This document shows, piece by piece, positions 24,356 to 34,142 of a DNA stretch of 64,000 nt. Positions within the stretch are counted from its first letter, which is position 1, and the number at the start of each line of letters is the position of its first letter. The stretch spans positions 124,001-188,000 of the forward strand of contig NZ_VOBQ01000012.1 in NCBI RefSeq assembly GCF_007833165.1, read 5' to 3'. The notes under the pieces were generated by a model. The model had not been told where the DNA came from. It worked only from the letters and a program-made list of their open reading frames with translations, and did not search any database. A program made the translations under genes and the position numbers. The DNA is from Caenimonas sedimenti. Lineage in GTDB: Bacteria; Pseudomonadota; Gammaproteobacteria; Burkholderiales; Burkholderiaceae_C.

Positions 24356-26197
24356 TTGGAACACGCACCCGCCTGGCTGACCAGCAGCCTCATTTACCTG
24401 GGCGCCGCGGTCATCGCCGTGCCGCTCTCGAAAGCCATCGGCCTGGGCTCGATCCTGGGCTACCTGGCGGCCGGTATCGCCATCGGGCCCTGGGGCCTCG
24501 GCCTGGTCACGAACGTCGAGGACATCCTGCACTTCGCCGAATTCGGTGTCGTGCTGATGCTGTTCCTGATCGGCCTGGAACTGGAACCGCGCCGCCTCTG
24601 GAGCCTGCGCCGCCCCATCTTCGGCTGGGGCAGCGCGCAGGTGCTGGGCTGCGCGGCCCTGTTGTTCGCGGCGGGGGTCGCGGCGGGCGCCCCATGGAAG
24701 ACCGCCCTGGTCGCCTCGCTGGGCCTGGCCCTCTCGTCCACCGCCATCGCGCTGCAGGTGCTGGGCGAGCGCCACCTGCTGCCCACCAGCAGCGGCCAGG
24801 CCGGTTTTTCCATCCTGCTGTTCCAGGATGTCGCCGCCATCCCGATCCTGGCGCTGGTGCCGTTGCTGGGCGTGGCGCAAGCGGAGCATGCCGCGGATGC
24901 CAACCAGTGGCTGGAAGCGCTGAAGGTCGTCGGCGTGATCGGCGGCATCATCCTCGGCGGCCGCCTGCTGCTGCGGCCCACCCTGCGCTGGATCGCGAAG
25001 AGCGAAACGCCGGAAATCTTCACCGCCGCCGCCTTGCTGCTGGTGGTGGCGATCGCCGCGCTGATGCTGTTCGTGGGGCTTTCGATGGCGCTGGGCGCCT
25101 TTCTCGCCGGCGTGCTGCTGGCCGAGAGCGAATACCGGCGCGAACTGGAAACCGACATCGAGCCGTTCAAGGGCCTGCTGCTCGGCCTCTTCTTCATCGC
25201 CGTGGGCATGAGCATCGACTTCGGCGTGCTGGCCCGCTCGCCCGGCGTCATGGCGGCCATCGTGCTGGCCCTGCTGTTGCTGAAAGGCGTGGTCATCTGG
25301 CTGATCGCCAGGCCCATGGGCATCCCCTTGCAGGAACGGCCCGTGTTCACGCTGCTGCTGGCCCAGGGCGGCGAGTTCGCCTTCGTGGTGTTCCAGGCGG
25401 CGGCCGGGGCGCGTGTCTTCCCGGCGGAAACGGCCTCGCTGCTGATCGGCGCGGTGGCTGTGTCGATGCTCGTGAGCCCGCTGCTGCTGGTGGCCATCGA
25501 CCGCTGGCTCCTGCCGCGCTTCGCGCAGGGCCAGCGCACGATGGATGAGATCAGCGAGCCGCAGGACGCCCCGGTGATCATCGCGGGCTTCGGCCGCTAC
25601 GGGCAGATCATCGGCCGCATGCTCGGTGCGCAAGGCATCAAGGCCACGGTGCTGGACCACGACGCCGACATGATCGAGGCCGCCCGCTCCTTCGGCTACC
25701 AGGTGCACTACGGCGACGCGACACGGCTCGACCTGCTGCGCACCGCGGGCGCCACCCGCGCCAGGGTGCTGGTCGTCGCGGTCGACGACAAGGAGCAGTC
25801 GCTGCGCATCGTCGACCTGGCGCGCGAACACTTTCCCGGCCTGGAGATCGTGGCCCGTGCCCGCGACGTGACGCACTGGAACGCCCTGCGCGACCGCGGG
25901 GTGATGCGGGTCGAGCGCGAGGTGTTCGAATCCAGCCTGCGCAGCGCGCGCACCGTGCTCGAAGTGCTGGGTTCGGCGCCGCACGAGGCGCGCAGGCACG
26001 CGATGCGCTTTCGCCGGCACAACCTCGAACTGTTCGAGAAGATGTACCCGCACCACAAGGACCGGGCGAAGCTCATCGCGGTGGTGAAGGAAGGGCGCCA
26101 GCAGCTGGAGGAGCAGATGGCGAGCGAGCGCGCCGAACTCGCCGGACGCGGCCACCGCGGTGAACGGCGGCCGCCGGGGTGGGACAAGGACGACTAG
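24356..26197 (+). CDS. KefB/KefC-type monovalent cation:proton antiporter
   Basis: A 613-residue CPA2-family antiporter: about 12 transmembrane helices (1-390), then a cytosolic TrkA-N nucleotide-binding domain with PVIIAGFGRYGQIIGRML and the acidic end of the second strand (VLDHDADMIEAARS). These proteins export potassium in exchange for protons, in Kef systems gated by glutathione adducts to protect against electrophiles. The conserved transport segment LSSTAIALQVL is present. The start is TTG (24356) with GGGGAG upstream. The preceding KefF-like gene forms a probable operon. Glutathione regulation is inferred from the pairing. The stop overlaps the convergent TauE-like gene in a shared CTAG. 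Confidence 0.92.
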   Translation: MEHAPAWLTSSLIYLGAAVIAVPLSKAIGLGSILGYLAAGIAIGPWGLGLVTNVEDILHFAEFGVVLMLFLIGLELEPRRLWSLRRPIFGWGSAQVLGCAALLFAAGVAAGAPWKTALVASLGLALSSTAIALQVLGERHLLPTSSGQAGFSILLFQDVAAIPILALVPLLGVAQAEHAADANQWLEALKVVGVIGGIILGGRLLLRPTLRWIAKSETPEIFTAAALLLVVAIAALMLFVGLSMALGAFLAGVLLAESEYRRELETDIEPFKGLLLGLFFIAVGMSIDFGVLARSPGVMAAIVLALLLLKGVVIWLIARPMGIPLQERPVFTLLLAQGGEFAFVVFQAAAGARVFPAETASLLIGAVAVSMLVSPLLLVAIDRWLLPRFAQGQRTMDEISEPQDAPVIIAGFGRYGQIIGRMLGAQGIKATVLDHDADMIEAARSFGYQVHYGDATRLDLLRTAGATRARVLVVAVDDKEQSLRIVDLAREHFPGLEIVARARDVTHWNALRDRGVMRVEREVFESSLRSARTVLEVLGSAPHEARRHAMRFRRHNLELFEKMYPHHKDRAKLIAVVKEGRQQLEEQMASERAELAGRGHRGERRPPGWDKDD

Positions 26198-26952
26198 GCG
26201 CCGACCGCGTCCCAGACCAGCTTGCACCCGGTCAGGAACATGCCGATGTAGATCAGGCGGTAGAACAGCAACGGCTGGATCCGGTGTGCCAGCTTCACGC
26301 CCACGATCACGCCGATGGGCGCGAACGGCAGCAGTGCCAGCGAGGTGCTCATGTTGCGCATGTCCAGCAACCCCAGCCAGGCATACGGCACCCACTTGCT
26401 CAGGTTCACGGCGAAGAAGAACACGGACATCGTCGCCGTGAACACCAGCGGCGGCAACCGCATCGGGATGACGTACGCGTTGACCGGCGGTCCGCCCGCA
26501 TGCGCGACGAAGCTGGTGAAGCCCGATGTGACGGTGAGCAGCGCGCCCAGCCATTTCGGCGGGTGCGGGCTGTCGGGCCGCGGAGGGAACAGGAGGCGTT
26601 GCGCCAGGAAGAGCAAGGTGCAGACGCCCACGATGCCGGCGACCGTGCGCGCATCGAGCATCTTGAACAGCAGCGTGCCGACGAGGGTGCCGACCAGGCC
26701 CAACGGCACCAGGAACTTGATCAGGTCCTTGTCCCAGTGCTTTCGGAAGGCGGCGAGGCCCATCACGTCCATCACGAACAGGATGGGCATCAGGATCGCC
26801 GCGGCCTGCGGCACCGTGACCGCCAGCGCCATCATGGGCACCGCCAGCGAACCGAAGCCGGCGCCGAAGCCGCTCTTGCTCACCCCCAGCAGCAGGACGG
26901 CGGGGATCGCGACGGCGTAGAAGAAAGGATCGGTGACCAGCGGGAGGCTCAA
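26194..26952 (-). CDS. TSUP-family (TauE/SafE) permease
   Basis: A 252-residue membrane protein with about eight helices in two repeats. The segments LLGVSKSGFGAGFGSLAVPMMAL and GFTSFVAHAGGPPVNAYV are the paired glycine-rich signatures of the TauE/SafE family, which export or import sulfite, organosulfonates or small carboxylates. The substrate is unknown. The only upstream start is TTG at 26952, which sits inside a perfect 7-bp palindrome with the GGAGG Shine-Dalgarno sequence in one arm, so translation may be weak. Confidence 0.85.
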   Translation of the reverse strand: MSLPLVTDPFFYAVAIPAVLLLGVSKSGFGAGFGSLAVPMMALAVTVPQAAAILMPILFVMDVMGLAAFRKHWDKDLIKFLVPLGLVGTLVGTLLFKMLDARTVAGIVGVCTLLFLAQRLLFPPRPDSPHPPKWLGALLTVTSGFTSFVAHAGGPPVNAYVIPMRLPPLVFTATMSVFFFAVNLSKWVPYAWLGLLDMRNMSTSLALLPFAPIGVIVGVKLAHRIQPLLFYRLIYIGMFLTGCKLVWDAVGA

Positions 26953-27585: not shown

Positions 27586-28209
27586 TCAGCGTTCCAGTGG
27601 GCCGCCGGCGAGCCAGCGCTCGCCTCGCCGATAGAGCTCCTGCACCACGTCACCTTTGAGCATGGGCATGTCCATCTTGACCTTGTAGCCGATGCGCGTC
27701 TGGATGTATGCCAGGTGGCGGTAGCCTTCCGGAAAGGTCGCGAGCAACGCCTGGTCGAGCTTGAGCTGCGCGGTCGGATCGACCGGGTCGATGCGGTCCT
27801 TCTCGTAGATCGGCTGGCGATGCAGGACTTTCCAGCGGCCTTCATGGCGCGTGACGAAATCGTGGAAGCGCCCGGTGCAGACCACGTCGCACAACACCGG
27901 ACCGTCCGCCCCTTCGACCATGCCGCGCTGGGAGATCGTCATCTTGGTCTGCGCGATGGCCCGGTCGCCGGCCACCTCGATCGCGGAGCCGCCCAGGAAA
28001 TGAAGGATGCTCACGCCCTTGGCCCAGCCCTCCTGCGTCACGCGGATGAAGTCCTGGAACGGGCCCTGGAACCAGGTCGCCATCATCACGCCGTCGGGAT
28101 GCCAGCAGGTCGCGAAGCGGTCCCAGTCGCCGGCGTCGCGCCAGACGGCCCAGCGCTCCACCAGCTCGCGAATGAGTTGCTTGTCCTGGAGGTCGTTGTG
28201 ATCGCTCAT
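27586..28209 (-). CDS. NTF2/SnoaL-like protein
   Basis: A 207-residue soluble protein of the cone-shaped NTF2-like fold (SnoaL-like; nuclear transport factor 2 family). Evidence is the helical start QLIRELVERWAVWRDAGDWDRFATCWHPDGVM, the GRFHDFVTRHEGRWKVLHRQ strand pair and the length. Members are isomerases, dehydratases or dioxygenase small subunits, and the active site varies, so no reaction can be assigned. Its ATG overlaps the stop of the DsrE-like gene by four bases (ATGA), making co-translation likely. It is the seventh gene of the run that starts at pcaI. Confidence 0.82.
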   Translation of the reverse strand: MSDHNDLQDKQLIRELVERWAVWRDAGDWDRFATCWHPDGVMMATWFQGPFQDFIRVTQEGWAKGVSILHFLGGSAIEVAGDRAIAQTKMTISQRGMVEGADGPVLCDVVCTGRFHDFVTRHEGRWKVLHRQPIYEKDRIDPVDPTAQLKLDQALLATFPEGYRHLAYIQTRIGYKVKMDMPMLKGDVVQELYRRGERWLAGGPLER

Positions 28210-28661
28210 GGCCGGATGTAGGACCATCCTTGCTGCTGGCGCTTCATCAGTTGCGTCACACCGGCCGGCACGTAGCCCAGGTCCGGCAGCATGTCGGACT
28301 TGGCCAGCTTCTGGTTGGTCATCGTGTTCTCGCACGCCACCACCTGGATGCCGGCCTTCATGGCGCTCGCGATGCGCGCCGCGGCCGGTGAACCCGCCTT
28401 CAGCATGTTGATGCCGGGTCCGTACACGACGATCTCCAGTTCCACGGCATCGGCGCCCAGGTCCGCCTGCACGTTGTAGGCGTTGTTGAGCGCGAGGCCC
28501 CATTTCGCCGGATCGTTGTCGCTCACCTGGAAGACAACCTTGTTGGGCCGGGCGGGCGCCGCGGCCTGCATCGGGGCGCAAGCAGCAAGTGAAGCACCGG
28601 CGAGCAGCACGGCGCCGGCGGCGATGAAGCGCCGGCGTGCCGGGGCGTGGGAAAGGGGCAT
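28206..28661 (-). CDS. DsrE/DsrF-like exported lipoprotein
   Basis: A 151-residue protein with RRR followed by a hydrophobic stretch and a lipobox (ASLAAC, C28), so a Tat- or Sec-exported lipoprotein. The mature part resembles the DsrE/YchN sulfur-relay fold: KVVFQVSDNDPAKWGLALNN at the start, ELEIVVYGPGINML, and a conserved cysteine C110 in GIQVVACENTM. DsrE-like proteins carry sulfur on that cysteine, but periplasmic members have no defined role. A good AAGGAG lies before the ATG. It overlaps the NTF2-like gene and follows the serine hydrolase by 21 bases. Confidence 0.82.
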   Translation of the reverse strand: MPLSHAPARRRFIAAGAVLLAGASLAACAPMQAAAPARPNKVVFQVSDNDPAKWGLALNNAYNVQADLGADAVELEIVVYGPGINMLKAGSPAAARIASAMKAGIQVVACENTMTNQKLAKSDMLPDLGYVPAGVTQLMKRQQQGWSYIRP

Positions 28662-28682
28662 GCGACTTCTCCTTGAGTGTGT

Positions 28683-29960
28683 TCAGGCAGCCCCCAGCAT
28701 ACGGCCCAGGGCCAGCAGCGCAGGCAAGGTCAACGGATCGTTCGCGGCACTCGCCGCGACGGGGTGCGAGGCGAAACGGGCCACCACCAGTTCGGCCTTG
28801 GGCGCGACGTAGAGCCGCTGGCCGTGGATGCCCCGGCCCTCGAAGGCACCGTGCTCGTTGTGCGTGACCCACCACATGCTGCGGTAGGAATAGCCGGGCA
28901 GCAGCGTGTAGCCGGCCTTGGCGAACTTCGCCGGGTCGGCGCCGCCACGGATGTCCGCCACCACGGCCGCGGGCAGCAGCTGCCGGCCGCCCCAGGCGCC
29001 GTCGCAGCGCATCAGCTCGCCGAAGCGCGCCATGTCGCGCAAGGCGGCGTTGAGGCCGCCGCCGCCCATGGGCACCCCGATCGGGTCCACGGTGAGGTAG
29101 CCATCCTGCTCGCAGCCCAGGGGCGCCCAGATGCGCTGCGACAGCATGTCGGCCAGCGCCACGCCGGTGACGCGCTTCATCACCCAGCAGAGCAGCTCGG
29201 TGTTGACCGTCTTGTAGGCGAAGGCTTGGCCGTGTTCGCCTTCGGGCCGCAAAGTCTGCAGGTACTCGTAGAAGTTCTGCGCGCCGCTGTAGCCGGCAGG
29301 ACGTGGACGCAGGCCACCGGCCCGCGAGTAGTCCCAGATCTGCGCTTTCGGGTCGGAGTACAGCTCGGAATACGCCACGCCGATCTGCATGTCCATCACC
29401 TGGCGCAGCGTCGCGTTCGCGTAGGCGGTCCCTTGCATCTCCGGCAGGTAGTGCGGCACCAGCCTGGTCTCGTCCAGCACGCCTTCGTGCACCAGCGCCG
29501 CCGCCAGGGTGCAGGCATACGACTTGGTGATGGAGAAGCAGCTGTGCGGCACGTGCGCCTGCAACGCGCCGAAGTAGCGCTCGTAGATGCGCTTGCCGCG
29601 GTGCAGGACCACGATGCCGTCGGTGTAGGTGTCGTGCAGGGCGGCGTCCCAGCGGCGCGGCTGCCCGTTCATGTCGGTGAACGGCAGGGCGTCGATGGCC
29701 GCGGCGTCGGCGGGCGATGGCTGGCCCAGCGGGCTCGCCGCGGTCTCGCCGCGCCAGACGTTGGCGGTCGGCACGAGCTCGCGCATGTGCGACAGGCTCC
29801 AGCGGATCTCGGGAAAGGCGAAAAACCGGTCGCCCGCGAAAGTCACCCGCCGTTCGGCCGCCGGCGGCGTGCCCTGCATCCAGCCCAGCACGTTGGGGTC
29901 GGACGCTGGCCCGCCGAGGTAGCGCTTGCCGTCGAATTCGAGCGTGTCGGTGGCATCCAT
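28683..29960 (-). CDS. Class C beta-lactamase-like serine hydrolase
   Basis: A 425-residue member of the penicillin-binding/class C beta-lactamase fold, the group that also contains esterases such as EstB and 6-aminohexanoate-dimer hydrolase. The SXXK motif is SITK, with nucleophile S143 and base K146; the second motif may be Y197-S-E. There is no signal peptide, which argues for a cytoplasmic esterase or amidase rather than a cell-wall enzyme. AAGGA lies eight bases before the ATG. It lies in the gene run with the maleylacetate reductase and pca genes, so it may release an aromatic or carboxylate substrate; this is inference. Confidence 0.87.
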   Translation of the reverse strand: MDATDTLEFDGKRYLGGPASDPNVLGWMQGTPPAAERRVTFAGDRFFAFPEIRWSLSHMRELVPTANVWRGETAASPLGQPSPADAAAIDALPFTDMNGQPRRWDAALHDTYTDGIVVLHRGKRIYERYFGALQAHVPHSCFSITKSYACTLAAALVHEGVLDETRLVPHYLPEMQGTAYANATLRQVMDMQIGVAYSELYSDPKAQIWDYSRAGGLRPRPAGYSGAQNFYEYLQTLRPEGEHGQAFAYKTVNTELLCWVMKRVTGVALADMLSQRIWAPLGCEQDGYLTVDPIGVPMGGGGLNAALRDMARFGELMRCDGAWGGRQLLPAAVVADIRGGADPAKFAKAGYTLLPGYSYRSMWWVTHNEHGAFEGRGIHGQRLYVAPKAELVVARFASHPVAASAANDPLTLPALLALGRMLGAA

Positions 29961-30016
29961 GCTTGCAGTCCTTGCCGGGCAAAGACTGGCAGGCTACGCC
30001 CCAGGCGGGCGGGCGG

Positions 30017-31080
30017 TCAATCGGGGCTGGGCCGGGTGCCGTCGAAAGCGTTCTGCAGCAGGCGCCGCAGGGCCTCGCGTTCGAGCGGACGCGGGTTGGG
30101 GTACTGGTTCTGCAGCGCGATGTCGAGCGTGCGGTCCAGGTCCTGCTGGCGCAGCCCGATGTCGCGCAGGGCGAGCGGCGCACCCAGCGCGCGGGCCAGG
30201 TCGTAGACGGCCTGCGCCGCGTCCGTGCCGCCCAGCGCACGCGCGATGCGCCGCATGGCGTCCGGCGCGGCCCGGCCGTTGTAGGCCAATGCATGCGGCA
30301 GGACGATGGTGTGCGTTTCCGCATGCGGCAGGTTGAAGCTGCCGCCCAGCGTGTGGCACAGCTTGTGGTGCAGCGCCATGCCGACGTGGCCGAGCACGGT
30401 GCCGCATAGCCATGCGCCGTACAGTGCATCGGCGCGCCCCGCCAGGCCCCGGGGGTCACGCACGATGGCCGGCAGCGCCTGGCCCAGCGCGCGGATGCCC
30501 TCCTCCGCCATCAGCGCCATCACGGGGTTGCCGTCGGCCGAGTAGAGCCCTTCGGCGGCATGGGCGATCGCGTTGATGCCGCTGGTGGCGCTCAGCGCGA
30601 CCGGCAGGCCCAGGGTGAGCTCCGGGTCGTAGATGACCGTGCGGGGCAGCACCCGCATGTCGCGGCCGGTCTTCTTGACGCCGGCCTCGGTGATGCCGTA
30701 GATCGGCGTCATCTCGCTGCCGGCATAGGTGGTGGGAATGGCGATGATCGGCAGGCCCGAATCCAGCGCAATCGCCTTGCCGAGCCCGGTGGTCGAGCCG
30801 CCGCCGATCGCCACGGCGCAATCGGCATCGAGGCGCCGCGCGGCTTCGCGCGCTTCACGCGCGCTTTCGATGGGGACGTGCATCACCGCCTGGTCGAAGA
30901 TGCCGGCGGCGCGGTCGCCCAGCAGCCGCATCACTTTCTGTGCCGAGTCACGCTGCTGGGGCGTGCACAGGACAAGTGCGCGTCGGGCACCCAACGCCTC
31001 GATCTCCTGCCCCAGTTGGGCCATCTTCCCGGCCCCGAAGATGACCCGGGCCGGCTGGCTGGTGTACAGGAAGGGCTGCA

Positions 31081-31081
<1 letters not shown>
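30017..31081 (-). CDS. Maleylacetate reductase
   Basis: An iron-containing alcohol dehydrogenase-type enzyme reducing maleylacetate to 3-oxoadipate with NAD(P)H, at the end of hydroxyquinol and chlorocatechol degradation. Signatures are PARVIFGAG near the N-terminus, AIGGGSTTGLGKAIAL (nucleotide binding), IPTTYAGSEMTPIYGIT, and the histidine-rich block HHKLCHTLGGSFNLPHAETH, which is specific to maleylacetate reductases. Length is 354 residues from a GTG start at 31081 that overlaps the pcaF stop by one base (TAGTG). Position directly after pcaIJF supports the assignment, as its product is their substrate. Confidence 0.92.
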
Positions 31082-32286
<1,205 letters not shown>

Positions 32287-32314
32287 GGTGTGTTTCCTTG
32301 GGTCTTTCGGTGGC

Positions 32315-32959
32315 TCATGGGGCCATGATCGGCAATCCCACGAGCTGCTCCAGTTCCGCATGCGACAGCCCGGGCACGGTGTCGATCAGGCGCAGGCCGC
32401 GCGGCGTGCATTCCAGGGTGGCGAGGTCGGTGTAGACGCGCTTCACGCAGGCGATGCCGGTGAGCGGGTAGCTGCAGCGCTCCACCAGCTTGCTCTCGCC
32501 CTGCTTGGTGAGCAGGTCCATCATCACCCAGGTCTGTTTCGCACCGACAGCCAGGTCCATGGCGCCGCCCACCGCCGGAATCGCGCCCTCTTCGCCGGTG
32601 TGCCAGTTGGCCAGGTCCCCGGTGGCGGACACCTGGAAGGCGCCCAGCACGCAGATGTCCAGGTGGCCGCCGCGCATCATGGCGAAGCTGTCGGCGTGGT
32701 GGAAGTAGGCGCCACCAGCCAGCAGCGTCACGGGCTGCTTGCCGGCGTTGATCAGGTCGTAGTCTTCGGTACCGGCAGCGGGTGCCGGGCCCATCCCCAG
32801 GATGCCGTTCTCGCTGTGCAGCAGCACTTCCAGGCCCTGCGGCAGGTGATTCGCCACCAGCGTCGGCATGCCGATGCCGAGATTGACGTACGCGCCTTCG
32901 TGGATGTCGCGGGCGACCCGTTGGGCGAGCTGGTCCTTGGTTCGTCTGGCGTAGCTCAT
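32315..32959 (-). CDS. pcaJ: 3-oxoadipate CoA-transferase subunit B
   Basis: PcaJ with PcaI transfers CoA from succinyl-CoA to 3-oxoadipate. The 214-residue protein has the start AQRVARDIHEGAYVNLGIGMPTL and the catalytic glutamate in LHSENGILGMGP (near residue 51), plus GGHLDICVLGAFQV, as expected for the beta subunit. The ATG at 32959 lies one base after the pcaI stop; an upstream in-frame ATG at 32983 would overlap pcaI. The same fold covers acetoacetate CoA-transferases, so substrate specificity rests on pcaF and the maleylacetate reductase next door. Confidence 0.93.
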   Translation of the reverse strand: MSYARRTKDQLAQRVARDIHEGAYVNLGIGMPTLVANHLPQGLEVLLHSENGILGMGPAPAAGTEDYDLINAGKQPVTLLAGGAYFHHADSFAMMRGGHLDICVLGAFQVSATGDLANWHTGEEGAIPAVGGAMDLAVGAKQTWVMMDLLTKQGESKLVERCSYPLTGIACVKRVYTDLATLECTPRGLRLIDTVPGLSHAELEQLVGLPIMAP

Positions 32960-32960
32960 G

Positions 32961-33662
32961 TCAGGCCGCCTTCTGGAAGCCACCGGCTTGCGTTGCCGTA
33001 CGCGGCACCTGCACGATGCGATGCACGAAGATGCCGGGCGTGACCACCGTCTCCGGGTCCAGTTCCCCGAGCGGCACGATCTCGTGCACCGAGGCCACGG
33101 TGCGGCGCGCCGCCATCGCCATCACCGGCCCGAAATTGCGCGCGGCCTTGCGATAGGTGAGGTTGCCCCAGCGGTCACCGCGCTCGGCCTTGATCAGCGC
33201 CAGTTCGGCATGGATCGGCGACTCCAGCACGTACATGCGCCCATCGATCTCGCGCGTCTCCTTGCCCTTGGCGAGTTCGGTGCCGTAGCCTGTCGGCGTG
33301 AAGAAGCCGCCGATGCCCGCACCGGCTGCGCGGATGCGTTCGGCCAGGTTGCCTTGCGGCACGAGTTCCAGTTCGACCTGCCCGCTGCGGTACAGCGCGT
33401 CGAACACCTGGCTGTCGGCCTGGCGCGGAAAGCTGCAGATGACCTTGCGCACCCGGCCGGCCTTCAGCAGGGCCGCCAGGCCGTGGTCGCCGTTGCCCGC
33501 GTTGTTGTTGACGATGGTGAGGTCGCGCGCGCCCTGGGCGATGAGCCCGTCGATCAGCTCGCCGGGGATGCCGGCCGTGCCGAAGCCGCCGACCATGACC
33601 GTCGCGCCGTCGGGGGTGCCGGCGAGTGCCTCGGCCACGGAGGGCGCAATCTTGTCGATCAT
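32961..33662 (-). CDS. pcaI: 3-oxoadipate CoA-transferase subunit A
   Basis: Alpha subunit of the CoA-transferase. Family features: ATVMVGGFGTAGIPGELIDGL near the N-terminus, NNNAGNGDHGLAALLKAGRV, the GGFFTPTGYGTELAKGKE loop and WGNLTYRKAARNF. From the ATG at 33662 (MIDKIAPSV) it is 233 residues; an ATG at 33683 is also possible and neither has a strong ribosome-binding site. It is the first gene of the leftward catabolic run and is divergent from the DUF1841 gene with about 45 bases between, so the promoter must be compact. No regulator gene is adjacent. Confidence 0.93.
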   Translation of the reverse strand: MIDKIAPSVAEALAGTPDGATVMVGGFGTAGIPGELIDGLIAQGARDLTIVNNNAGNGDHGLAALLKAGRVRKVICSFPRQADSQVFDALYRSGQVELELVPQGNLAERIRAAGAGIGGFFTPTGYGTELAKGKETREIDGRMYVLESPIHAELALIKAERGDRWGNLTYRKAARNFGPVMAMAARRTVASVHEIVPLGELDPETVVTPGIFVHRIVQVPRTATQAGGFQKAA

Positions 33663-33707: not shown

Positions 33708-34142
33708 ATGTTCAATCCCAGCCAGGAAGAGGTGCGGCGATTCTTCTGCGCCGTGCACACCAAATCGAGGGGCGGCGCGCCCATGGATGCGCTTGAAACG
33801 CTGGCCGGGCAGTGGCTAGCCGAGCATCCCGAGTACCACCCCGAGGTGGAGGATGCGGACGCCGCCGTCGCCCGTGTCTACGACGGCGCGGGCGGCCGGA
33901 CCAATCCATTCCTGCATCTTTCGATGCACCTGTCGATCAGCGAGCAGTGCTCCATCGACCAGCCGCGCGGCATCCGCCAGGCGGTGGAGCTGCTGGCGGC
34001 GCGGCGCGACTCATTGCACGACGCGCACCACGAAGCGATGGAGTGCCTGGGGCAGATGCTGTGGGAGAGCCAGCGGTCGGGGCGGCCGCCGGATGGGGAG
34101 GCTTACGTGGCCTGCGTGCAGCGGCGCGCGACAAAGGATTGA
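33708..34142 (+). CDS. DUF1841-family protein
   Basis: A 144-residue soluble protein beginning MFNPSQEEVRRFFCAV, the hallmark of the DUF1841 family of beta- and gammaproteobacteria. NPFLHLSMHLSISEQ and an alpha-helical C-terminus with HDAHHEAMECLGQMLWE follow. The histidines in the last block suggest metal binding, but the function is unknown. It is divergent from pcaI and is followed by a long hairpin before the convergent cytochrome gene. Confidence 0.88.
   Translation: MFNPSQEEVRRFFCAVHTKSRGGAPMDALETLAGQWLAEHPEYHPEVEDADAAVARVYDGAGGRTNPFLHLSMHLSISEQCSIDQPRGIRQAVELLAARRDSLHDAHHEAMECLGQMLWESQRSGRPPDGEAYVACVQRRATKD

What the first reader, a model, noticed from the sequence alone, without database searches (positions are those of the whole stretch)
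27586..33662. Orphan maleylacetate/beta-ketoadipate operon with three unusual extra genes
pcaI, pcaJ, pcaF and a maleylacetate reductase overlap or nearly touch, followed by a serine hydrolase, a DsrE-like lipoprotein and an NTF2-like protein. The end of the pathway is complete but there is no ring-cleavage or monooxygenase gene. The extra genes may handle an ester or amide of an aromatic or a chlorinated carboxylate, and an FMN reductase follows.
Basis: partly seen in the sequence, partly recalled or inferred. Interest (0 to 1): 0.6.

Follow-up and report, generated by a model that had tools for sequence, protein, structure and literature searches.

The report
Bacterial cofactor-free hydroxybenzoate decarboxylase-like gene
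A soil-type bacterium keeps the last steps of an aromatic-ring breakdown pathway next to a small gene whose active site matches fungal enzymes that remove the acid group from plant phenols, an enzyme kind not tied to this bacterial pathway in the papers found here.

Summary
The operon is real: pcaI-pcaJ-pcaF-maleylacetate reductase-serine hydrolase-DsrE lipoprotein-"NTF2-like" protein run head to tail on the minus strand. The surprise is the last gene: its only strong matches among solved structures are the fungal cofactor-free hydroxybenzoate decarboxylases PPP2 and AGDC1 (structural Z 15.4-16.0, next entry 7.9). Eight of eleven named AGDC1 active-site residues are identical and essentially invariant in 114 homologues; the essential fungal potassium ligand is not kept. 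In 6 of 8 plasmid regions read, an intradiol dioxygenase and maleylacetate reductase genes lie within 3 kb. I read it as a decarboxylase feeding the hydroxyquinol pathway; activity and substrate are inferred. The pathway is not truly orphan: the genome holds a hydroxyquinol-type dioxygenase and a candidate ring hydroxylase on other contigs. In relatives the same slot spans 30 bp to 77 kb and holds ring-cleavage genes in 9 of 29, so the window is probably a reduced version. The serine hydrolase is NylB-like and has macA or pcaF beside it in 11 of 16 genomes; DsrE looks like a passenger.

The parts
32961..33662 (-). pcaI, 3-oxoadipate CoA-transferase alpha subunit
   Evidence: TIGR02429 381 bits, cut-off 128.5; ATG at 33662 read
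32315..32959 (-). pcaJ, 3-oxoadipate CoA-transferase beta subunit
   Evidence: TIGR02428 286 bits, cut-off 243.6
31081..32286 (-). pcaF, 3-oxoadipyl-CoA thiolase
   Evidence: TIGR02430 711 bits, cut-off 597
30017..31081 (-). macA, maleylacetate reductase (Fe-ADH fold); GTG start overlaps the pcaF stop by 1 nt
   Evidence: 3w5s 3e-122 and 3hl0 4e-122, both named maleylacetate reductase; best overall 3jzd 2e-157, named only iron-containing alcohol dehydrogenase
28683..29960 (-). serine hydrolase, NylB/beta-lactamase-like, SITK motif at residues 143-146
   Evidence: PF00144 113 bits; 4gb7 8e-66; motif
28206..28661 (-). DsrE-like protein with a lipobox-type N-terminus (by eye), Cys28 and Cys110; probably a sulfur-related passenger
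   Evidence: PF02635 37 bits; 1l1s 5e-17
27586..28209 (-). SnoaL_4/NTF2-like protein, proposed cofactor-free hydroxybenzoate decarboxylase related to AGDC1/PPP2 (W20, R24, D25, T45, W46, H70, Y135, Q170 shared with AGDC1; F71, L72 and R131 differ)
   Evidence: PMC7862292
26978..27520 (-). NADPH-dependent FMN reductase-like protein; an fmnR homologue follows snoaL, often after a Bug receptor gene, in a part of the relatives
   Evidence: PF03358 151 bits; fmnR in 22 and Bug in 70 of 80 loci, order
26194..26952 (-). TauE/SafE-family exporter, end of the variable slot
   Evidence: PF01925 115 bits
33708..34142 (+). DUF1841 gene, anchor at the other end of the slot
   Evidence: PF08897 181 bits; found in 58 of 60 genus genomes
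24356..26197 (+). KefB-type transporter gene, second anchor of the slot (type named by eye)
   Evidence: 52 of 60 genus genomes at E<=1e-150

Best explanation
The operon carries maleylacetate to central metabolism (MacA, then PcaIJ, then PcaF) and adds a bacterial AGDC1/PPP2-like, cofactor-free decarboxylase (27586-28209) that removes CO2 from a hydroxybenzoate to give hydroxyquinol or a phenol one hydroxylation away from it. The proposed chemistry is that of the fungal enzymes: Arg24 anchors the carboxylate, Trp20/Trp46 twist it out of plane, Thr45/Tyr135/Gln170 hold ring hydroxyls, and the His70-Asp25 dyad protonates the ring carbon so that CO2 leaves. Ring hydroxylation and ring cleavage are supplied by genes on other contigs of the same genome (C24, C11). 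The NylB-like hydrolase probably releases the acid from an ester or amide. The arrangement is a reduced version of a larger catabolic island that fills the same slot in related species (slot 45-77 kb in seven of them). Shown by tools: gene content, homology, conserved residues, linkage, slot variation. Inferred: decarboxylase activity, substrate, flux, order of steps, direction of the evolutionary change.
For: PDB profile search with 15 homologues: 7jmr (PPP2) 6e-38 and 6w54 (AGDC1) 8e-35, next 8e-5; the window protein alone 2e-28 and 2.5e-24, next 6.5e-4. Foldseek's first ten rows are all PPP2/AGDC1; VIA-align Z 16.0-15.4 for the four PPP2/AGDC1 entries, then 7.9. Of eleven residues that PMC7862292 names around the AGDC1 site (mapped by hand on the printed alignments) eight are identical; among 114 distinct homologues at 55% identity or more these eight are invariant except Tyr135 (113 of 114). 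Linkage: intradiol dioxygenase and macA both within 3 kb in 6 of 8 plasmid regions read; in 80 Comamonadaceae-type loci a dioxygenase homologue somewhere in 55, macA in 29, either in 57. Co-occurrence in 60 genus genomes: dioxygenase 37/37 of snoaL+ against 12/23 of snoaL-; macA 33/37 against 5/23 (Fisher p 4e-6 and 2e-7, not corrected for kinship). The own C11 dioxygenase is closest to hydroxyquinol 1,2-dioxygenase 1tmx (4e-78), catechol dioxygenases following at 2e-34.
Against: The fungal K+ ligand E88, essential in AGDC1 (E88A dead), is Leu72 here in 114 of 114 homologues, R87 is Phe71, and Y146 (Val in PPP2) is Arg131: potassium dependence and specificity must differ. AGDC1 does not act on 2,4- or 2,5-dihydroxybenzoate (PMC5605622), acids that could feed hydroxyquinol most simply. 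The NTF2 fold also hosts dehydratases and LinA with the same His-Asp dyad. In a phylum sample 13 genomes besides the own one had a close homologue: a dioxygenase lay adjacent in 2, and 11 had neither dioxygenase nor macA in the 12.5 kb fetched (ten of one family, nine of them one genus). In 23 of the 80 loci neither was found (some short contigs). Four snoaL+ genus genomes (G002, G029, G046, G048, the last 79% complete) have no macA match. In two remote homologues at 28-31% identity Gln170 is Leu and in one His70 is Arg. Residues 22-47 of the AF2 model, which hold three of the eight residues, are below pLDDT 50.
Confidence: 0.62

Rival explanations
1. The NTF2-like protein is a lyase or tautomerase acting after ring cleavage, for example 3-hydroxymuconate to maleylacetate, or a dehydratase, using the shared His-Asp dyad.
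For: [quoted passage not shown] PMC7862292); adjacency to the dioxygenase and macA rather than to an acid-forming enzyme.
Against: Those structures score Z 6.5-7.8 against 15-16 for the decarboxylases, and the Trp clamp, Arg24 and the hydroxyl-binding Thr/Tyr/Gln set are kept. The tautomerisation is thought to be spontaneous (recalled).
Confidence: 0.2
2. Plain beta-ketoadipate tail: pcaIJF and macA serve several peripheral routes and the last three genes are unrelated passengers left by island turnover.
For: pcaF alone, pcaIJF alone, pcaF-serH and pcaIJF-snoaL all occur in this slot in relatives, so content looks modular; dsrE shows little linkage.
Against: snoaL and serH recur with macA, pcaF or dioxygenase genes; snoaL overlaps its upstream neighbour and is strongly conserved (81-91% identity in the 80 best loci, several Comamonadaceae genera).
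Confidence: 0.18
3. The slot was short originally and the long islands of relatives are later expansions, so the window is not a reduced version (a question of history, compatible with any reading of function).
For: On the flank-gene tree the full islands form mainly one clade, with one more (G017) elsewhere; the tree is midpoint-rooted and I did not examine its support values.
Against: Other Comamonadaceae genera already have lysR-dioxygenase-...-Dabb-snoaL-Bug in one block, some followed by tauE-kefB, and G022, inside the clade of reduced slots, keeps the dioxygenase next to snoaL.
Confidence: 0.3

Closest known systems
AGDC1 gallate decarboxylase (Arxula adeninivorans) and PPP2 (Madurella mycetomatis), PDB 6w54/7kd9 and 7jmr/7jmv
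   Same: Homology over nearly the whole chain, same fold, identical Trp clamp, His-Asp dyad, carboxylate Arg and hydroxyl-binding Thr/Tyr/Gln
   Different: 25-32% identity; K+ ligand Glu replaced by Leu; Tyr/Val at the specificity position replaced by an invariant Arg; bacterial; linked to macA and intradiol dioxygenase genes; activity untested
Hydroxyquinol (1,2,4-trihydroxybenzene) pathway: hydroxylase, hydroxyquinol 1,2-dioxygenase, maleylacetate reductase, PcaIJ, PcaF
   Same: MacA and PcaIJF in the operon; dioxygenase and hydroxylase homologues in the genome
   Different: Genes split over three contigs; extra decarboxylase-like and hydrolase genes
NylB 6-aminohexanoate-dimer hydrolase / class C beta-lactamase-like esterases
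   Same: PF00144 fold, SxxK motif, E 8e-66 over about 350 residues
   Different: Substrate unknown; neighbours are aromatic-pathway genes
DsrE/MTH1491-like small sulfur proteins
   Same: PF02635, E 5e-17 to 1l1s
   Different: Looks like an exported lipoprotein (by eye); no linkage to the aromatic pathway established

Membership tests
AGDC1/PPP2 cofactor-free hydroxybenzoate decarboxylases | Sequence and fold homology over the chain | tested here: met
AGDC1/PPP2 cofactor-free hydroxybenzoate decarboxylases | His-Asp catalytic dyad (H86, D40) | tested here: met
   H70 and D25 in 114 of 114 homologues at 55% identity or more
AGDC1/PPP2 cofactor-free hydroxybenzoate decarboxylases | Tryptophan clamp (W35, W61) | tested here: met
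   W20 and W46 in 114 of 114
AGDC1/PPP2 cofactor-free hydroxybenzoate decarboxylases | Substrate-binding R39, T60, Y150, Q192 | tested here: met
   R24, T45, Q170 in 114 of 114, Y135 in 113 of 114
AGDC1/PPP2 cofactor-free hydroxybenzoate decarboxylases | Central potassium site with E88 (and R87 salt bridge) | tested here: not met
   Leu72 and Phe71 in 114 of 114; E88A is dead in AGDC1. So it is filed as a related bacterial variant, not as a member of the K+-dependent fungal class
AGDC1/PPP2 cofactor-free hydroxybenzoate decarboxylases | Non-oxidative decarboxylation of a hydroxybenzoate; trimer | not testable with these tools
   needs enzymology and structure
Hydroxyquinol lower pathway | Maleylacetate reductase | tested here: met
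   by homology
Hydroxyquinol lower pathway | 3-oxoadipate CoA-transferase and thiolase | tested here: met
   NCBIfam cut-offs passed
Hydroxyquinol lower pathway | Hydroxyquinol 1,2-dioxygenase in the genome | tested here: met
   by homology only, C11:121362-122249, 1tmx 4e-78; not in the operon; activity untested
Hydroxyquinol lower pathway | Hydroxylase producing hydroxyquinol | tested here: inconclusive
   C24 FAD_binding_3/Rng_hyd_C protein 66% identical to a hydroxylase found near snoaL in relatives; its nearest solved relatives (RebC, 2,4-dichlorophenol and 2-hydroxybiphenyl monooxygenases) do not fix the substrate
NylB-type hydrolase | SxxK nucleophile motif in a PF00144 fold | tested here: met
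   SITK 143-146
NylB-type hydrolase | Amide or ester hydrolysis | not testable with these tools
   needs enzymology

The most novel reading that the evidence does not exclude
A bacterial lineage found in Comamonadaceae, Burkholderiaceae, Hyphomicrobiales, Rhodococcus and Embleya, hidden under the label 'nuclear transport factor 2 family protein', consists of potassium-independent, cofactor-free hydroxybenzoate decarboxylases that supply hydroxyquinol by direct decarboxylation of a trihydroxybenzoate: an undescribed entry into the beta-ketoadipate pathway that needs neither prFMN nor a metal.
Probability: 0.35. Interest if true: 0.72.

Novelty: new variant of a known kind. Interest (0 to 1): 0.55.

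Why it matters
Zeug et al. call AGDC1 and PPP2 founding members of an overlooked cofactor-free decarboxylase group and conclude that earlier 'lactic bacteria homologs' are probably not of this type because the catalytic side chains, above all the histidine, seem absent (PMC7862292, passages). Here are bacterial proteins that keep the catalytic set, lie beside macA and intradiol dioxygenase genes in two phyla, and are annotated only as NTF2 family. If they decarboxylate, they would explain how hydroxyquinol can arise from plant-derived acids in such bacteria, offer prFMN-free catalysts for making phenols, and show how the K+ requirement of the fungal enzymes can be dispensed with. The slot comparison also shows a catabolic region whose content changes in modules between fixed flanks.

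Tried and rejected
Chance or misread genes: rejected; family matches and conservation are clear.

'Orphan pathway': rejected; searches of the own genome found the dioxygenase and a hydroxylase candidate. The second PF00775 hit (C12, 203 aa) lacks the N-terminal domain and passes no NCBIfam cut-off; not used.

DsrE as part of the pathway: not supported. In G001 it lies near (one ORF away from a short gene that looks like a cytochrome subunit) a SorA-type sulfite dehydrogenase gene (653 bits, cut-off 600); in G024 genes that look SorA/SorB-like by eye adjoin it. In G001 and G016 it is inside the aromatic island; in the other seven genomes no island gene was seen beside it, some contigs being short.

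Sulfonated-aromatic reading (TauE, DsrE, maleylacetate as in 4-sulfocatechol degradation, recalled): considered; its marker enzymes were not sought, so it is neither supported nor excluded. Chlorinated substrate and a TftG-like role for the YCII protein of relatives are recalled analogies; no YCII gene was seen in the window's neighbourhood.

Promoter scan: nothing found, uninformative. Structure model: only 30 close sequences were used, hence pLDDT 75.8 with a weak stretch 22-47. In the second look no other entry rose above Z 7.9.

Own slips: one search used a pcaI query one base out of frame (5 stops), so its pcaI column is void; later pcaI calls use proteins from relatives (on). ORF calling lost 25 of 80 loci and was replaced; that method still gave lower counts (dioxygenase 45, macA 16, hydroxylase 21 of 79 loci) than the direct tblastn (55, 29, 24 of 80), which I report.

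Literature: searches (hydroxyquinol and maleylacetate reductase with SnoaL; hydroxyquinol and maleylacetate with nuclear transport factor 2; Ramlibacter with hydroxyquinol; NTF2-like with hydroxybenzoate decarboxylase; maleylacetate reductase and intradiol with nuclear transport factor) returned 0 papers; some returned listings of 20 (of 34), 13 and 1. Of these I saw the abstract and passages of PMC7862292 and passages of PMC5605622; the rest only as listings. Nothing outside that open-access library was searched.
Full report
What is there. On the minus strand between a DUF1841 gene (33708-34142, +) and a KefB-type gene (24356-26197, +) lie pcaI, pcaJ, pcaF, macA, a serine hydrolase, a DsrE-like lipoprotein, a SnoaL_4/NTF2-like gene, an FMN reductase and a TauE-family gene. 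The first four are within 28 nt of each other or overlap; the serine hydrolase follows after 56 nt; DsrE and the NTF2-like gene share an ATGA overlap. The window is contig C49:124001-188000 of a 5.9 Mb genome in 51 contigs. By its nearest relatives it is a Ramlibacter-like member of the Comamonadaceae (titles; the organism itself is unnamed).

The NTF2-like gene. Pfam gives SnoaL_4 (63 bits) and NCBIfam nothing. Against solved structures a 15-row profile finds PPP2 (7jmr, 6e-38) and the gallate decarboxylase AGDC1 (6w54, 8e-35), then nothing better than 8e-5; the single sequence gives 2e-28 and 2.5e-24. An AF2 model of modest quality (pLDDT 75.8, pTM 0.68; residues 22-47 weak) matches the same two proteins in the first ten Foldseek rows (E 5e-13 to 5e-10) and with Z 15.4-16.0 over 172-179 residues in VIA-align, the next entry having Z 7.9.

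Active site. PMC7862292 (abstract and passages) names W35, R39, D40, T60, W61, H86, R87, E88, Y146, Y150 and Q192 in AGDC1. Mapped by hand on the alignments printed, with full-length numbering of the window protein (the stretch used starts two residues later), eight are identical: W20, R24, D25, T45, W46, H70, Y135, Q170. Three differ: F71, L72 (the potassium ligand) and R131. One search examined 117 distinct translated homologues of at least 150 aligned columns from the loci held; 114 are at 55% identity or more, and in these the eight are invariant except one His at Tyr135, the three differences being equally invariant. Of the other three (28-32%), two have Leu at Gln170 and one of them Arg at His70; the third is a partial match that keeps the Asp, Thr, His and Gln but not the clamp Trp. 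Since about a third of all columns are invariant in a set like A1, the weight lies in the identity with AGDC1 at 25-32% overall identity. The potassium site is a tested feature that is not met, so I file the protein as a bacterial variant that probably works like AGDC1/PPP2, not as a member of the K+-dependent class. Position 146 is Tyr in AGDC1 and Val in PPP2 and bears on gallate binding, so the invariant Arg points to another substrate.

Linkage. In eight plasmid regions read (homologues 59-70% identical), six have maleylacetate reductase and intradiol dioxygenase within 3 kb of the gene: Caballeronia NK8, Shinella, Rhodococcus erythropolis R138, Sinorhizobium meliloti Rm41, Agrobacterium and Embleya (the last by tblastn only, its record being unannotated there). 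Cupriavidus P-10 has a dioxygenase homologue about 10 kb away and no macA in the stretch; Bradyrhizobium elkanii has neither. In 80 loci (the best 80 of at least 575) a dioxygenase homologue is held in 55, macA in 29, either in 57; 23 have neither, several on short contigs. A frequent order is lysR (divergent), dioxygenase, transporter, YCII, Dabb, NTF2-like, Bug receptor, nitro- or FMN reductase. In a phylum sample of 398 genomes 15 had a match, 14 besides the own genome, 13 of them close homologues: dioxygenase adjacent in two, macA in one of those, and eleven without either in the 12.5 kb fetched, ten of these from a single family. So the gene is not tied to the pathway everywhere.

Co-occurrence. 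In 60 genus genomes (45 at least 90% complete and at most 5% contaminated) the gene is in 37, in four only as pieces (G034, G044, G056, G059); a hydroxyquinol-type dioxygenase (E<=1e-30 with the own protein) in 37 of these 37 and 12 of the other 23; macA (E<=1e-80) in 33 of 37 and 5 of 23. Fisher one-sided p 4e-6 and 2e-7, without correction for kinship or incomplete bins.

Rest of the pathway in the same genome. Of two PF00775 hits only that at C11:121362-122249 has both dioxygenase domains. It matches hydroxyquinol 1,2-dioxygenase 1tmx (4e-78) and 3n9t, labelled PnpC (8e-77), far better than catechol dioxygenases (2e-34), and is followed by citryl-CoA lyase-like, CaiB-like and branched-chain-type transporter genes. 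Orthologues at 81-87% occur in 14 other genus genomes, among them G046, G048 and G051, which like the window keep the NTF2-like gene without a dioxygenase in the slot. A FAD hydroxylase at C24:412426-414060 is 66% identical to a hydroxylase found near snoaL in a relative (L053) and lies near an alpha/beta hydrolase gene.

The slot. DUF1841 and kefB lie on one contig in 29 of 60 genus genomes (coordinates; distances worked out by hand); the distance runs from 30 bp (G006) through 7.5 kb (the window) to 77 kb (G017). By tblastn with representative proteins the content ranges from nothing (G006) or fmnR-tauE (G054) over pcaF (G010, G012, G021, G050 and others), pcaIJF (G005, G018), pcaF-serH (G028, G057), pcaIJF-snoaL (G046, G048) and pcaIJ-macA-pcaF-snoaL (G051), to slots with a dioxygenase (9 of 29: G001, G013-G017, G022, G037, G059). 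The seven largest (45-77 kb) also hold amidohydrolase, transporter and macA genes and, except G017, the hydroxylase; G004, G008 and G009 have such islands but no kefB on the contig. Genes without a representative are not listed. In 16 serH orthologue loci (own included) macA is next to serH in eight and pcaF in three. A tree of four flank proteins (46 of 51 genomes kept, five dropped for short sequence) places the window in a clade of mostly reduced slots in which G022 still has the dioxygenase block. Together with the same block in other genera this favours loss in the window lineage; midpoint rooting and unexamined support values leave it unproven.

Serine hydrolase and DsrE. The hydrolase is closest to NylB (4gb7 8e-66) with an SxxK motif. 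Release of an aromatic acid from an ester or amide fits and is inferred. DsrE homologues have scattered contexts, a few of them with sulfur genes; I treat it as a passenger.

Verdict. Demonstrated: homology, conserved active site, linkage, co-occurrence, slot variation. Inferred: activity, substrate, order of steps, history. On checking I mended several counts (plasmid identities, genomes without macA, pieces of snoaL, slot sizes); none of them moved my odds.

Noticed in passing
L088:7363-14263 (own contig C11) and L009, L011, L012, L017, L025: A hydroxyquinol-type dioxygenase is repeatedly followed by a citryl-CoA lyase-like (citrate synthase C-terminal domain) gene, a CaiB-type CoA transferase and a branched-chain-type ABC transporter; why a ring-cleavage enzyme travels with a citryl-CoA lyase-like protein is unexplained.
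   Followed up: partly
L161:14114-15346: A SorA-family sulfite dehydrogenase gene (above its NCBIfam cut-off) lies close to dsrE inside the aromatic island of G001; genes that look SorA/SorB-like by eye also adjoin dsrE in L121.
   Followed up: partly
L088:14777-15919 and L258:6423-7466: A methionine synthase-like (PF01717) gene lies at the end of the C11 dioxygenase module, and a protein that looks MetE-like by eye adjoins the NTF2-like gene in three genomes of the phylum sample (L258-L260); possibly a demethylation step for methoxylated acids.
   Followed up: no
L014: The record is titled Bordetella parapertussis MAG, but its NTF2-like gene is 87% identical to the window and its neighbourhood shares clusters with another betaproteobacterial MAG (L049); the bin is probably misnamed.
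   Followed up: no
L195:9461-10236: In G059 one slot dioxygenase is split over two overlapping pieces in different frames; one dioxygenase of G013 is also reported in two pieces. Such islands may be decaying or misassembled.
   Followed up: no
L252-L257: In one genus of the phylum sample the NTF2-like gene sits near sigma-factor- and response-regulator-like genes and, in four of these six loci, an htpG-like gene (names by eye), with no dioxygenase or macA nearby, although the active-site residues are kept.
   Followed up: partly
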